Positions 10,755 through 21,184 of a stretch of 25,720 bases of DNA are shown here, in pieces. Origin of the DNA: a virus. The notes below the pieces were generated by a model. The model made no database searches. It was given only the letters and a program-made list of their open reading frames with translations, and was not told where the DNA came from. Within the stretch, counting starts at the first letter, position 1. Each line of letters begins with the position of its first letter. The stretch lies in the IMG/VR virus record IMGVR_UViG_3300014913_000071, positions 1-25,720 of that record; one strand, written 5' to 3'. A program made the position numbers and the translations under genes.

Positions 10755-11171
10755 ATGGCTCAGAAGCGGACAAAAACAAGCAAACCAGTCGTCCTCATCT
10801 CGCGTTGCCTGCTCGGGGTGCCTTGCCGGTATCATGGCCGGCGATACACGCGTTGGGGTAAGCGGATAGGCCGGCCTCAGTTAATTGCGCGCCTGCGCAA
10901 GAGGTACACGCTCATCGACATCTGCCCCGAAGTAGACGCCGGCTTGCCTACCCCCCGGCCACCCACAAGAAAAGAGAATGGCCGCTATATCGCCGCTGGC
11001 GCAGACGTTACGGCCGTTTTTCTTGCAGGTGCCAAGCTGGCGCTAAGACTTGCCCAACGTCATCACGTAGAGCGCGCCTATCTGCTGCGCGGTTCGCCTA
11101 GCTGTGATTCCATAGACGGCGCTACAGGCTGCCTCTTGCGGCAACATCGCATCAGGGTTTGCCCTGTCTAA
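10755..11171 (+). CDS. TudS-like DUF523 thio-nucleobase desulfidase
   Basis: A 138-residue DUF523 protein, the only plus-strand gene. Family blocks are in order: ISRCLLGVPCRYHG (C18, C24), DICPEVDAGLPTPRPP (C57, E59), GAKLALRLAQ, RGSPSCDS (S114, C117) and a C-terminal GCLLRQHRIRV. DUF523 includes TudS, a [4Fe-4S] enzyme that removes sulfur from thiouracil, and related tRNA 4-thiouridine desulfidases. The cluster uses three conserved Cys, which C18, C57 and C117 would supply. SPSC is normally followed by Gly but here by Asp, so substrate or activity may differ. The gene is visibly richer in A+T than its surroundings and its stop is one base from that of the convergent sulfur-related gene. Both signs suggest acquisition as a unit. 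Confidence 0.85.
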   Translation: MAQKRTKTSKPVVLISRCLLGVPCRYHGRRYTRWGKRIGRPQLIARLRKRYTLIDICPEVDAGLPTPRPPTRKENGRYIAAGADVTAVFLAGAKLALRLAQRHHVERAYLLRGSPSCDSIDGATGCLLRQHRIRVCPV

Positions 11172-11172
11172 T

Positions 11173-12447
11173 TTATGTTTCAGCCCGTTCACGCGCCTTC
11201 TCTCCAGAGCGCACGAGATCGTCGAAGCAGCAATCGTCCAGCGGGCGCATCGGCCCGATGCGCTTTTCCCACCGCCGTATATCGTCCGCCAGGCCCGGAT
11301 AATGATGCGCCAAGGCCGCTGCCTGCAACCCGCACTGGCCGGGACAACACCAGCACGCCGTCCGCACAAACCCGCGAGCGTAACCATCCCAGAGAGGCAA
11401 GTTGCAGGCCTCTACAACTGCCCGTATTACGTCTTTGCGCACGTTAAAACATGGCGCATAATGCTGGTAGTCATCGCGGCGCTTGCCGAAAGATGACAAC
11501 GGAGATTCGGCCGTCTTCTCCGTTCCTCGCACTGCTTCTTCCGCCCGGCTCCCGGTGAATATCGTTACTTCCCGGCTTTTGTATTTTGCCGTCACGTACT
11601 CAGCAAACGGCGCATGTATGAAGCGGTAAGCACACGGTCTGTAGACTAAGGAAGGCCATGCACCTTCTTGACGCAGCCAGCTCCACCATTCGTGCTTCGG
11701 CTTCACTATTACCGGTTCCGCCGAGAGCTGCTCGGCTATTTCGCAAACATACGCAGGCAACCCCGGAAACTCTACACCTGTATCCGTGAAGACGGCAATA
11801 CAGGGTAGTTCGGGAAAATTTCTGCGCACCCAGAGAAGCGTAGCTAGCGAATCGTAACCACCGGAGAATTGGACTATGCAACGGCCTCGTTTTTCGATAC
11901 CAGCGCGCACAGCTTCTGGACAAGCGAAAAAATCGTCCGTAGACCGCCAATCGCTCACCCTGTCTCGCAGATGCCCCTTGCCCGGACGAAACCCGGTTGC
12001 CGGCAGGAGCTTGTCCAGCTTCAGCGATTCCAGGTCAATTCCGCTGGCCTCTACTTCTAGCAATAGCGGCGCCAGCGCCGGTGTAAATTGCCCTTGCGTA
12101 TAAGGATTATTCAAACTTATGACTGCCGCCTTTTCCTCGGAACTGTCCGGTTCGTACTCGACCCACGTGATGTCGCGCGCGTCGATCCAGTCCTGCCCGA
12201 GCAGCCGCAGGGCCTTCACGCGCTGGTGCCCCGCGATGATGCGCATGCCGCGCCGGTTGATGACGATGCTGCCCTCCAGCCGGTAGCCGTCCCCGTCGTG
12301 ACCGGCCACGGCCGCGCTGCCGCGCCGGATGCTCTCGGCGAGGCCGCGCAGCGCGTCGTCGTCGATCGTCCGCGGGTTGTACGGCGCGGGCTTGAGCTGG
12401 TCGAGCGGCACGCGGCCAGTAGTCTCCGTCCGCTGTGGCGACTCCAT
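11173..12447 (-). CDS. ParB-like domain fused to PAPS-reductase-like PP-loop enzyme
   Basis: A 424-residue fusion. Residues 11-~120 are a ParB/sulfiredoxin-fold domain: PLDQLKPAPYNPRTIDDDAL and RIIAGHQRVKALRLLG (GHQR 73-76). Residues ~185-410 are a PAPS-reductase-like PP-loop domain: IVQFSGGYDSLATLLW (SGGYDS 195-200 binds ATP pyrophosphate), CIAVFTDTGVEFP, TIFTGSRAEEAVRGTEKTAESP and a Cys cluster CWCCPGQC (365-372) that could hold an iron-sulfur cluster. The pairing recalls the separate IbrB (ParB-like) and IbrA (PAPS-reductase-like) proteins of enterobacterial prophages. IbrAB activate surface-protein genes, but their chemistry is not settled. DndC is a more distant relative. DNA for the first ~97 residues is GC-rich like the phage; the rest, from about 12150 down, is AT-richer. 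The substrate is unknown. Confidence 0.82.
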   Translation of the reverse strand: MESPQRTETTGRVPLDQLKPAPYNPRTIDDDALRGLAESIRRGSAAVAGHDGDGYRLEGSIVINRRGMRIIAGHQRVKALRLLGQDWIDARDITWVEYEPDSSEEKAAVISLNNPYTQGQFTPALAPLLLEVEASGIDLESLKLDKLLPATGFRPGKGHLRDRVSDWRSTDDFFACPEAVRAGIEKRGRCIVQFSGGYDSLATLLWVRRNFPELPCIAVFTDTGVEFPGLPAYVCEIAEQLSAEPVIVKPKHEWWSWLRQEGAWPSLVYRPCAYRFIHAPFAEYVTAKYKSREVTIFTGSRAEEAVRGTEKTAESPLSSFGKRRDDYQHYAPCFNVRKDVIRAVVEACNLPLWDGYARGFVRTACWCCPGQCGLQAAALAHHYPGLADDIRRWEKRIGPMRPLDDCCFDDLVRSGEKARERAET

Positions 12448-14414: not shown

Positions 14415-14738
14415 CTATATCTCATCCCGTTGCCGCTCGCTCTCGCAACGCCATTCAATGAGGGTGTGTTGCGCGCGTGGCCAGTGCTTCAACCCGGTTT
14501 CCAGCCCCTCGACCAGTTGTCGCAGCAGCGCCAGCCAGCGCTCCAGTTCTCTCCGCGTCGGCTGGTAGCCGTCGCCCGGTACATCGCCCAGGTATGCTTC
14601 GAGGGATGTGCGAGCGCCCGGATGAAAGGGCTCAAGCCGGTAGCCCTGCCAATAGCAGCCCCATGCCAGACGCACGATGCCCCACGCCCGACGCAGCTTG
14701 ATCGAGGCTGCTCGCAGTTCCCGGTCCTCGTCCGTCAC
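14415..14738 (-). CDS. Unknown 107-residue helical protein
   Basis: ATG 14738 overlaps the stop of the dockerin-like gene as ATGA. It is largely helical (MTDEDRELRAASIKLRRAW, then PTRRELERWLALLRQLVEGLETGLKHW) with a middle rich in Trp and Tyr. No family is recognised. It ends in TAG, and its frame continues through a second TAG, with no TGA or TAA, into the gene at 14115-14306. Confidence 0.65.
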   Translation of the reverse strand: MTDEDRELRAASIKLRRAWGIVRLAWGCYWQGYRLEPFHPGARTSLEAYLGDVPGDGYQPTRRELERWLALLRQLVEGLETGLKHWPRAQHTLIEWRCESERQRDEI

Positions 14739-15541
14739 GGCAGCGCCCTCAGGAGCAGGCCCAGATCGTCCAGGTCCACGTCGCCGTCGAAGTCCAGGTC
14801 ACCCCGGGCAGGCCCAAGGTCCCAGTCCGTCTCTCCGTAGTGCGCCAGGAGCTGCGCCAGGTCGGCCAGGTCCACGTCCCCGTCGAACTGGACATCGCCG
14901 AGTTGCCAGTCCTGAGGCACCACCCAGAACTCGATCAGGCCGAAGTCCCCGATGTCCCGGACCCGATCCCACACCACCGCAGCGAGCACCCGGATGAGGA
15001 CGTGCTCCAGCCGGCCTTCCAGCGGCTCGCGCTCCGGCGGTCCGCCCGGCGGCATGAACCCCCAGTGCAGCACGAAGTGGCCCGGCGGCTCGCCGAACGG
15101 CCGGCTGTAGACCGGGCAGCGCGCCGGCCTGACCGAGGTCACCAGCGTGGCGGCCGCGGCGTCCGGCTCGTACTGGATCCAGGCGTCGGTCGGGGCGCAG
15201 GACGGGCCGCCATGAGCATCGCCCCGGCACTGACCCAGCCACAGGCCCGTACCATCGACCTCGAACACGGTGCACGAGCCCTCGTCCCGCCAGGCGCCGG
15301 GTACCGTGACCTCAACCTGATCCCACCAGTAGTCCGGCATCTCGCCCGGCGCTGGGTCGCACGGGACCACACAGTGCGGCCGGAACCCGATCTCGATGTC
15401 CCAGGCCCAGCGCACCACGTGTGGCGGCAGGTCTGGGTCGTGCTGGGCGAACGCCAGGTCCAGCGTGACCGGCGCCTCGCCGCGCGCGGAGACTACACAC
15501 CAAGTACACAGCAAGAGGATAGCGAGCCGAAGTCTAGACAT
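14735..15541 (-). CDS. Secreted protein with C-terminal dockerin/EF-hand-like repeats
   Basis: A 268-residue exported protein. Residues 1-~22 are a signal peptide (RLRLAILLLCTWCVVSARGEA, cleavage near A19-A23). The middle (~24-205) is a Cys-containing, Trp-rich, beta-type domain of unknown function. The end has two near-identical calcium-loop units, GDVQFDGDVDLADLAQLL (215-232) and GDLDFDGDVDLDDLGLLL (247-264), each with the D-x-x-x-D-G-D-x-D spacing of dockerin type I loops. Such endings are very common on secreted proteins of Planctomycetota, often outside any cellulosome. An AGAGGTG ribosome site precedes ATG 15541. In a phage it might modify or bind the host surface. The gene may be host-derived. 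Confidence 0.82.
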   Translation of the reverse strand: MSRLRLAILLLCTWCVVSARGEAPVTLDLAFAQHDPDLPPHVVRWAWDIEIGFRPHCVVPCDPAPGEMPDYWWDQVEVTVPGAWRDEGSCTVFEVDGTGLWLGQCRGDAHGGPSCAPTDAWIQYEPDAAAATLVTSVRPARCPVYSRPFGEPPGHFVLHWGFMPPGGPPEREPLEGRLEHVLIRVLAAVVWDRVRDIGDFGLIEFWVVPQDWQLGDVQFDGDVDLADLAQLLAHYGETDWDLGPARGDLDFDGDVDLDDLGLLLRALP

Positions 15542-19228: not shown

Positions 19229-19927
19229 TCACTCCTCGCTCGCGGCGCACGTCGTCGCCGCGTGTCTATCCAGGAACTCCTCCAGCGCGCGGTGCAGCCG
19301 CTGGAGCGCCTCCATCAGGTTGGCATTGCTCTCATCGACCAGATCATTCGTGAGCAGGATCAGCACCTGGTTCACGTAGAAGAGCTGGCTCATTCCGCCG
19401 AGCCGCCGGTTCGCGCTCGCCGTGGCCTTCGCAATGGGCTGGCCCGCGAAGTGGGCCAGCGTGCGCTTGAGCGCCACCGGCCGGCCCCTGTGCGTCGCCA
19501 GCTTGTGCCGCACGATGCGGTCGTAGGTGTCGGCGCTGATCGCCGCGCAGCGCGTGATGGTCTCGGGGTCGAGCTTCAGCTCCATCGCGCGCGTGATGCA
19601 CCGCGCCAGGTCGTACCTGCTCAGTGGTCGCCCGTGCCGCGCGTTGCGGCGCACGGCGTCGGCGAACATCTCCGCGTCGGTGCTGTAGGTGTGCACTTCG
19701 GCAGGCACCTTGGCGTCCGGCCCGGCAAACCGCTGGTACGCCGTCACGCGGTGGAAGCCGTCCACGACGCGCATGCTCTTGGCGTCGACGACGATCGGCG
19801 GCAGCGCCTCCTCGGCGCGCAGGGCGTCGACGAGCCGCGCGACGGCGGTGTCGTCCACCTGGTGCCGCGGGTAGAGGTTGTAGTCCAGCACGACTTTGCT
19901 TGCGGGAATTCTGGTAGTTTTCGGCAT
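19229..19927 (-). CDS. ParB-like DNA-binding/nuclease-fold protein
   Basis: A 232-residue protein. The first ~90 residues form a ParB N-terminal (ParB/Srx) domain: RIPASKVVLDYNLYPRHQVDDTAVARLVDALRAE, LPPIVVDAKSMRVVDGFHRVTAYQRF. The centre has a helix-turn-helix region (LSRYDLARCITRAMELKLDPETITRCAAISADTYDRIVRHKLA), as in ParB/KorB-type proteins and phage ParB-like regulators. The last 60 residues are helical. Such proteins bind repeated DNA sites for partition or regulation, and the ParB domain can bind CTP. Its AGGAGC ribosome site is preceded directly by a 420-bp GAC pentamer array, a candidate target for it. No ParA is seen. Confidence 0.8.
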   Translation of the reverse strand: MPKTTRIPASKVVLDYNLYPRHQVDDTAVARLVDALRAEEALPPIVVDAKSMRVVDGFHRVTAYQRFAGPDAKVPAEVHTYSTDAEMFADAVRRNARHGRPLSRYDLARCITRAMELKLDPETITRCAAISADTYDRIVRHKLATHRGRPVALKRTLAHFAGQPIAKATASANRRLGGMSQLFYVNQVLILLTNDLVDESNANLMEALQRLHRALEEFLDRHAATTCAASEE

Positions 19928-19953: not shown

Positions 19954-20376
19954 CCTGACTCGACTCGACACGACCGAACAGGACCCGACTGGACTCGACA
20001 CGACCGGACTTGACAAGACCCGACGCGGCACTCGACCTGACGGGACACGACGAGACACGACGAGACACGACGAGACTAGACACGACGGGACCAGACTGGA
20101 CCGGACCTGATTCGGCACGCAACGTGACTCGACACTCGACTTGACCCGACGTGACGCGACAAGACATGACGTGACTGGACACGACTTGGCACCTGACTCG
20201 ACAGGACACGACCGGACTCGACTAGACTCGACCCGACGCGACAGGACCGGGCACTCGACTCGACACGACGCGACCGGACCAGACATGGCGCGACGAGACA
20301 GAACTCGGCACCTGACTTGATCTGACGTGACCGGACTGGACTGGACGCGACCAGACGGGACCAGACTTGAACTGAC
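19954..20376 (-). repeat. Pentamer array 1: GAC every 5 bp, punctuated by GGCAC
   Basis: About 77 units of NNGAC (plus strand; GTCNN on the coding strand) fill the whole leader upstream of the ParB-like gene. GAC is nearly invariant and the two other bases vary widely; tc, ac, cg, ct and cc are common. Five GGCAC elements (near 20026, 20114, 20188, 20250, 20307) break the array into blocks of roughly 10-16 units and shift the 5-bp phase. After GGCAC the next unit is usually tcgac or ctgac. Three perfect 10-bp copies at 20045-20075 show local slippage. The gene-proximal end, ACCTGACTCGAC, is the same as in array 2. Confidence 0.92.
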
Positions 20377-20384
20377 AGCGCATA

Positions 20385-20948
20385 TCACTTGTCTCTGACG
20401 AGCTCCACCGCATACGTCCCGAACTGGCCCGGCGTCTTCGGCGCGCCCGGCCGCTGGTCGCCAACGCCGACGAACTGCCCGGCGCGCCGGAAGAACCGCA
20501 GGATGATCTCCGGCGTCACGATCTCTTCGTCGTACTCGATGTTCACCGTCGTCGCCCACTCGTTCACGCGCGCCCGGCTGCGCAGCACGCCGTTGCCCTG
20601 CACGACGGCTCGCCGCGTGTCGATCACGTAGTCGTGCAGCGGCTTGTTCGTCTTCGGGTGGACCAGCGGGCACTCCTCCTCCAGGATGAAGACGCCGGCC
20701 GCGAAGACCGTCTTCGCGCTGGTCTTGGCGATGCGGTACCCGCTGGCCGCCTTCAGGAGACTGCCCCGGAACGCCTCGCCCTTGAGGTAGAGCTGGCCGC
20801 TCGGCAGCCGGTACGCCGAGCGCTCGGCCTCTTCTGCGGGCAACGGGACCTGCTTGCGCGATGGCGCGCCATCGACGTGGGACATGCCGGCGGGGTTGTG
20901 CATCAGCAACGGACGCTTGCCCAGGATTCGGAATACACATCTTTGCAT
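20385..20948 (-). CDS. Phage protein with VG-x-GD-x-RP motif, function unknown
   Basis: A 187-residue protein from ATG 20948 with AAAGGAGCC six bases upstream. RILGKRPLLMHNPAGM near the start, GEAFRGSLLKAASGYRI in the middle, then RSRARVNEWATTVNIEYDEEIVTPEIILRFFRRAGQFVGVGDQRPGAPKTPGQFGTYAVELV. This pattern (LLMHN, R-x-R-x-x-x-W, AG-x-x-VG-x-GD-x-RP, GQF) occurs in many unassigned phage and plasmid proteins. GEAFRGSLLKAA recalls the 'G-S-x-x-K-G-x-x-R' loop of RAMP/Cas7-fold proteins, so a nucleic-acid-binding role is possible but unproved. It is flanked on both sides by GAC arrays; the one upstream forms its leader. Confidence 0.7.
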   Translation of the reverse strand: MQRCVFRILGKRPLLMHNPAGMSHVDGAPSRKQVPLPAEEAERSAYRLPSGQLYLKGEAFRGSLLKAASGYRIAKTSAKTVFAAGVFILEEECPLVHPKTNKPLHDYVIDTRRAVVQGNGVLRSRARVNEWATTVNIEYDEEIVTPEIILRFFRRAGQFVGVGDQRPGAPKTPGQFGTYAVELVRDK

Positions 20949-20973
20949 CGCGGCTCCTTTCTGTAGAAGAAGA

Positions 20974-21184
20974 CCTGACTCGACCTGACCCGACACGACG
21001 GGACGAGACGCGACGGGACAAGACCCGACCGGACAAGACCGGACACGGCACTCGACTCGACGCGACAGGACTTGACAAGACCGGACCGGACACAACAGGA
21101 CTCGGCACCTGACCGGACAAGACCCGACTTGACGAGACGCGACGCGACGTGACCAGACGCGACACCAGACCTGACGCGCGACCG
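20974..21184 (-). repeat. Pentamer array 2: GAC every 5 bp, punctuated by GGCAC
   Basis: About 37 NNGAC units upstream of the gene at 20385-20948, with the same design as array 1. Two GGCAC punctuations (near 21047 and 21103) give blocks of about 14, 10 and 13 units. It starts next to the ribosome site with ACCTGACTCGAC, as array 1 does. The sequence of units is not a copy of array 1, so the rule rather than the sequence is shared. The 90 bp beyond it (21185-21275) hold no gene that I can support. Confidence 0.92.

What the first reader, a model, noticed from the sequence alone, without database searches (positions are those of the whole stretch)
19954..21184. Two punctuated GAC-every-5-bp arrays form the leaders of a ParB-like gene and a VG-x-GD-x-RP-type gene
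Both arrays keep GAC at strict 5-bp spacing over ~420 and ~210 bp while the two spacer bases drift freely, and both are cut into blocks by GGCAC. Both end at the gene side with ACCTGACTCGAC, followed by an ordinary ribosome site. A fresh slippage product would keep whole units; here only GAC is kept, which implies selection for a half-helical-turn pattern in DNA or a GUC ladder in RNA. A ParB-like DNA-binding gene beside the arrays makes a centromere/operator role one option. Recombination sites, decoy sites for a methylase or nuclease (many GACTC sites fit GANTC) or an RNA leader are others. I know of no described element with this grammar.
Basis: partly seen in the sequence, partly recalled or inferred. 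Interest (0 to 1): 0.9.

Follow-up and report, generated by a model that had tools for sequence, protein, structure and literature searches.

The report
Phage VIPR guide-RNA arrays, GUC type
The odd repeats sit beside a virus gene for a CRISPR-like RNA-binding protein and very probably encode guide RNAs of the newly described VIPR system, in a variant whose fixed letters are GUC instead of the published GGC/GGU.

Summary
The arrays are real. They carry GAC every 5 bp on the + strand, so GTCNN on the coding strand. The longest exact run is 75 nt, against at most 25 in 2,000 shuffles.

The same grammar (fixed triplet plus two free bases) recurs in many phages beside one protein family, phrog_4652. 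The window's member (20385-20948) is predicted to fold as a Csm3/Cas7-like RAMP (pLDDT 85, Z 11.7).

This matches VIPR, described in an April 2026 preprint: phage RAMP protein Vipr, accessory gene vap, and guide RNAs of GGY/NN repeats whose NN bases pair with DNA, skipping one base. The window is therefore a VIPR locus: vipr, a ParB-like probable vap, and nine guide blocks of roughly 10-16 repeats separated by GUG(C/U)C.

It differs from the characterised systems. The triplet is GUC(U); among 166 relatives it is GGC, GAC, GUC, CGC, GGU, GUU or CUC, on the vipr sense strand wherever orientation can be told. The vap is ParB-like, shared with three other loci. The guide blocks are contiguous, with no recognised tail.

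No target was found, but the free bases behave statistically like codon positions 1-2. Centromere, methylase-decoy and recombination readings are not supported.

The parts
20385..20948 (-). vipr: RAMP-like protein, 187 aa, phrog_4652
   Evidence: phrog_4652 E 5.8e-18; AF2 pLDDT 85.4; PDB matches all Csm3/Cas7-like RAMPs, Z 11.7
19229..19927 (-). ParB-like protein, 232 aa, probable vap
   Evidence: phrog_1033 E 1.6e-14; homologues beside vipr in L032, L451 and weakly L454
20972..21176 (-). Array 2, upstream of vipr: three (GTCNN)n guide blocks
   Evidence: 31 counted units on the complementary strand
19957..20378 (-). Array 1, between vipr and the ParB-like gene: six (GTCNN)n guide blocks
   Evidence: 57 counted units on the complementary strand
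21109..21176 (-). Guide block B1
21052..21103 (-). Guide block B2
20972..21046 (-). Guide block B3, next to the vipr ribosome site
20312..20378 (-). Guide block B4
20255..20306 (-). Guide block B5
20193..20249 (-). Guide block B6
20119..20187 (-). Guide block B7, with an internal GTGTC step
20032..20113 (-). Guide block B8
19957..20026 (-). Guide block B9, next to the ribosome site of the ParB-like gene
20027..20311 (-). Array 1 punctuation: GTGCC (GGCAC on +) at 20027, 20114, 20188, 20250, 20307
21047..21108 (-). Array 2 punctuation: GTGCC (GGCAC on +) at 21047 and 21104

Best explanation
The locus is a VIPR system carried by a phage or prophage. A transcript from the vipr strand carries nine (GUC-NN)n blocks. 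Vipr subunits, one per 5 nt, coat each block, hold the fixed GUC(U) as scaffold and present the NN pairs. The NN series pairs with double-stranded DNA of the form NNxNNx..., skipping one base that usually falls on the codon wobble position, and the bound complex silences genes of competing phages or prophages. The ParB-like protein is the probable accessory DNA-binding factor. Shown here: array grammar, gene family, RAMP fold prediction, sense-strand orientation, recurrence. Inferred from the published system: transcription, complex formation, 1-nt skip, silencing. Unknown: the targets of these nine guides and the role of the GUG(C/U)C punctuation, which may be a processing or hinge site.
For: Vipr preprint with matching anatomy. 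Window protein: phrog_4652, RAMP fold. High-entropy 5-nt arrays lie with vipr in 33 of 45 loci plus 4 more on the same record, 0 of 119 bacterial microsatellite controls. Triplets on the vipr sense strand, 0 of 89 orientable arrays antisense; GTC arrays deviate to GTT (16) not ATC (2), Fisher p 6e-4 against a flipped-GAC model. Block size 10-16 repeats agrees with the published 9-16. NN pairs look like codon positions 1-2: N1N2 against swapped p 4e-7 for GTC/GTT guides. Same vipr-array-ParB layout in L451.
Against: The triplet is not GGY, the form characterised experimentally. No structured 3' tail or Rfam match was seen. No target was found for the four guides tried and local decoding gave no signal. 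Coherence of guides within loci is not significant (p 0.05-0.1). 34 of 166 vipr loci show no array by my scan. No expression data.
Confidence: 0.88

Rival explanations
1. The arrays are leader sites for autoregulation: Vipr binds its own and its neighbour's mRNA leader, as TRAP binds (KAGNN)11, and controls translation, with no DNA targeting.
For: Arrays sit 20-60 nt before ribosome sites in many loci.
Against: Spacers are hypervariable yet codon-like; arrays also lie downstream of the genes or between genes; guide function was shown experimentally for GGY relatives (PMC13142463). A dual role is not excluded.
Confidence: 0.06
2. The window's guides are read from the + strand as GACNN, an inverted array of the common GAC type, rather than as GUCNN from the vipr strand.
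For: GAC is a common sense-strand triplet elsewhere (30 of 166 loci).
Against: 0 of 89 orientable arrays are antisense to vipr; deviant triplets are GTT rather than ATC; GTT arrays exist in two loci.
Confidence: 0.08
3. Partition centromere or operator of the ParB-like protein.
For: A ParB-like gene abuts array 1.
Against: Among the fetched loci a ParB-like relative was found only in L032, although arrays occur in many more loci; it was later found in L451 and L454. The arrays follow vipr, and no ParA was seen beside it.
Confidence: 0.02
4. Simple microsatellite slippage without function.
For: GACNN microsatellites exist in bacterial genomes.
Against: Those had low spacer entropy and no vipr (0 of 119), while phages keep the triplet and vary NN.
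Confidence: 0.01

Closest known systems
VIPR systems (Viral Interference Programmable Repeat; PMC13142463, bioRxiv 2026.04.26.720920), type II of phage SUSP1 and a Pseudomonas fulva prophage
   Same: Phage RAMP protein of about 20 kDa, neighbouring vap gene, tandem 5-nt repeats of fixed triplet and hypervariable NN, about 9-16 repeats per guide, arrays around vipr.
   Different: Triplet GUC(U), not GGY; ParB-like vap; guide blocks contiguous and punctuated by GUG(C/U)C with no recognised structured tail. The paper allows 'a related consensus' and staggered arrays in supplementary figures that could not be read here.
Class 1 CRISPR effectors (Csm3/Cas7 RAMPs)
   Same: Predicted fold (Z 11.7) and, by inference, a protein filament on guide RNA.
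   Different: No CRISPR repeats or spacers and no cas operon; 5-nt triplet/NN grammar instead of contiguous spacers.
TRAP-binding (KAGNN)n leaders
   Same: Triplet plus 2-nt spacer grammar in a leader RNA (from my own knowledge).
   Different: Different triplet, spacers without information, unrelated protein fold.

Membership tests
VIPR | RAMP homologue with RRM core and glycine-rich loop | tested here: met
   AF2 model and PDB search, Csm3/Cas7 top; conserved VGVGxxRP and GRF-type glycines in the alignment
VIPR | Minimal locus: vipr plus a vap gene predicted to act on DNA | tested here: met
   ParB-like neighbour, recurrent beside vipr in L032, L451 and L454; whether it is one of the published vap1-6 is unknown
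VIPR | Tandem pentanucleotide repeats: conserved triplet alternating with hypervariable NN | tested here: met
VIPR | Triplet GGY 'or a related consensus' | tested here: inconclusive
   Window triplet is GUC with GUU deviants; within one homologous family the triplet is GGC, GAC, GUC, CGC, GGU, GUU or CUC. Which consensus forms the authors list (fig S17) could not be read
VIPR | 9-16 repeats per guide RNA | tested here: met
   Blocks of about 10-16 units
VIPR | Invariant, structured 3' tail | tested here: inconclusive
   Blocks end GTCGA/GTCAG then GTGCC and no Rfam match; no covariation test was made
VIPR | Guide RNAs expressed and bound to Vipr | not testable with these tools
   needs small-RNA sequencing and pull-down
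VIPR | NN bases match DNA targets with a 1-nt skip | tested here: inconclusive
   No target found; NN letters codon-like
Class 1 CRISPR-Cas | CRISPR array of identical repeats and unique contiguous spacers with cas operon | tested here: not met
   Array is 5-nt triplet/NN; no CRISPR-Cas family among the eight proteins scanned, most of them neighbours of the arrays
ParABS partition site | Array constantly tied to a ParB gene | tested here: not met
   Arrays follow vipr; among the 226 vipr loci only L032 and the window had this ParB-like gene

The most novel reading that the evidence does not exclude
The fixed triplet is an evolvable recognition handle: Vipr lineages repeatedly switch between GGY, GAY, GUY, CGC and CUC, giving mutually orthogonal guide scaffolds so that competing phages cannot load each other's guides; and a ParB-like partner marks a distinct VIPR subtype in planctomycete-linked phages, in which ParB may help hold or spread along the silenced DNA.
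Probability: 0.35. Interest if true: 0.8.

Novelty: new variant of a known kind. Interest (0 to 1): 0.62.

Why it matters
VIPR is proposed as an ancestor of CRISPR and uses a gapped guide code. This locus and its relatives suggest that the scaffold triplet is not fixed at GGY but follows Vipr phylogeny and has switched many times (18 changes on the tree against 27 when shuffled). That makes the protein-RNA recognition code testable by swapping Vipr or triplet, and would give orthogonal scaffolds for programmable DNA silencing. It also adds a ParB-like partner in planctomycete-linked elements and a target-free test that the free bases are codon-like.

Tried and rejected
Target search: local decode of 260 guides against 2 Mb at skips 0-2 equalled shuffled guides. 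Exact 9-unit patterns of B6 and B9 gave 0 hits in viral contigs. 8-unit patterns of B7 and B3 gave 2 and 22 hits; none extended convincingly. In 372 genomes of the Planctomycetota phylum B9 gave 17 matches against 2 for the reversed control, and B6 gave 40 against about 34 (my count), all with 2 mismatches, so no target is claimed; the excess for B9 may only mean that the pattern is codon-like. Within-locus coherence test not significant. No Rfam family. No Pfam, NCBIfam or PADLOC family for Vipr. ParB-like model poor beyond its N-terminal domain (pLDDT 64). One alignment was too diverse for a collection scan. Centromere, GANTC decoy, recombination-site and microsatellite readings were rejected as given under the rivals and the first-reader verdict.

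Full report
Observation. On the + strand GAC recurs every 5 bp at 19957-20366 and 20972-21163, 57 and 31 counted units, with spacer entropy 3.77 and 3.47 bits. The longest exact run is 75 nt, against 25 at most in 2,000 shuffles. Every gene beside them is on the - strand, so the coding-strand pattern is GTCNN. GTGCC (GGCAC on +) divides it into nine blocks, six between vipr and the ParB-like gene and three upstream of vipr. A typical spacing is 57 nt = 10x5+7. Each punctuation is a 7-nt step, so the phase shifts by two; GTGTC occurs as a variant.

Recurrence. I separated high-entropy spacers from microsatellites: 45 loci have the degenerate grammar. Some share a lineage (L012, L022, L052, L066, L101, L113, L117), but most do not share array sequence. 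The matching scan of bacterial genomes also returned 119 stretches, none with high-entropy arrays. In the viral loci the arrays lie next to genes, often 20-60 nt before a ribosome site.

The constant partner. The gene beside the arrays is repeatedly one family, only about 19-29% identical to the window protein, with conserved glycine motifs. All representatives tested match phrog_4652, function unknown; the second gene is often phrog_5926 or phrog_15946. A profile found vipr in 33 of the 45 high-entropy loci and on the record of 4 more, and in 0 of 119 genome stretches. Cultured phages (Pseudomonas LESphi2, Felixounavirus VSe11, Mycobacterium LittleE, DSL-LC04, Cyanophage Cy-LDV1) have the same gene with 5-nt GGC or GGT arrays nearby.

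Identity. A literature search for pentanucleotide repeats in phages returned PMC13142463, which describes VIPR systems: Vipr, a phage RAMP homologue; vap; and vrRNAs of GGY/NN repeats, whose NN bases pair with double-stranded DNA with a one-base skip and silence competing phages. The window gene 20385-20948 was folded from a 15-row alignment (pLDDT 85.4, pTM 0.81). Its best PDB matches are Csm3 and Cas7-like RAMPs (Foldseek E 1.4e-5; Z 11.7 over 160 residues, 3.7 A). Fold, gene pair, array grammar and repeat number therefore agree with VIPR.

Which strand, which triplet. An unbiased scan around 166 non-redundant vipr genes, read on the vipr sense strand, gave GGC 71, GAC 30, GTC 13, CGC 10, GGT 5, GTT 2, CTC 1 and none detected 34 (first pass). 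The reverse complements GCC, ACC, GCG, AAC and GAG never led, so none of 89 orientable arrays is antisense. GAC and GTC are each other's complement, so I used deviant triplets as a second test: GAC arrays deviate mostly to GAT, GGC mostly to GGT, and GTC mostly to GTT (16, against 2 ATC). Flipped GAC arrays would be expected to show ATC (Fisher p 6e-4). The window's guide RNA is thus most likely GUY/NN. On a Vipr tree the triplets are clustered (18 changes against 27 shuffled) but have switched repeatedly; the window sits on a long branch, so its exact place is unsure.

Partner gene. The ParB-like protein 19229-19927 has homologues beside vipr in L032 (38% identity, also GTC arrays), in L451 from a genome drawn from the phylum of a Planctomycetota MAG (41% identity, Vipr 38%, array between the two genes) and weakly in L454. 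That supports a ParB-like vap and a planctomycete-linked lineage. The window's dockerin-like protein end at 14735-15541 would fit such a host (my reading, not tested).

Guide content. No target was found for the four guides tried in public collections, nor by local decoding. I therefore tested whether the NN letters behave as the published rule predicts, with the skipped base at the codon wobble position. NN pairs score as codon positions 1-2 at the level of real coding sequence (GTC guides 0.167, expected 0.166; skip at position 1 0.109, at position 2 about 0). They beat N2N1-swapped controls in the GTC/GTT (46 guides, p 4e-7), GAC (84 guides, p 5e-5) and GGY (96 guides, p 1e-7) sets. Permuting units among guides lowers the score when pooled (p 0.004) but not significantly within loci (p 0.05-0.1 for the larger sets, 0.4 for GGY). 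This is support, not proof, and general dinucleotide bias may contribute. The window's nine blocks alone reject skip at position 2 but cannot separate wobble from position 1.

Mechanism. Shown: arrays, gene family, fold prediction, orientation statistics, recurrence. Inferred from the published system: transcription of the arrays, Vipr coating with one subunit per 5 nt, gapped pairing, silencing. The GUG(C/U)C steps may be processing sites or hinges between neighbouring complexes; that is a guess.

Novelty. The system has been known since April 2026. New here, subject to supplementary figures that I could not read, are the GUC scaffold, the breadth of scaffold triplets in environmental phages, the ParB-like partner, the punctuated contiguous array and the target-free codon test.

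Noticed in passing
window 11173-12447 (-): Second ParB-like domain, here fused to a phosphoadenosine phosphosulfate reductase domain.
   Followed up: no
window 10755-11171 (+): A gene on the opposite strand to nearly everything else that reads by eye like a DUF523 protein; not searched.
   Followed up: no
window 14735-15541 (-): Protein ending in a dockerin-like GDLDFDGDVDLDDLGLLLRAL repeat, a possible hint at a planctomycete host.
   Followed up: no
L108, L043, L028, L025, L030/L082: Records with high-entropy GACNN arrays but no detectable vipr on the record: divergent Vipr, fragments, or guide-only elements.
   Followed up: partly
L026 10334-10680: Array, ribosome site, a four-codon ORF (ATGAAACAAACCTGA), then a second array and ribosome site before vipr, as if a leader had been duplicated.
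   Followed up: no
L040 3185-3321 and 3969-4165 (reverse-strand coordinates): Two arrays in one phage share long identical stretches, suggesting recent array duplication.
   Followed up: no
L259 (Mycobacterium phage LittleE gp34-gp33): A vipr/vap pair inserted against the direction of the tail genes, with GGCNN arrays downstream.
   Followed up: no
L449 (record of L055): vipr reading frame interrupted by one TGA although a GAC/GTC array lies beside it.
   Followed up: no
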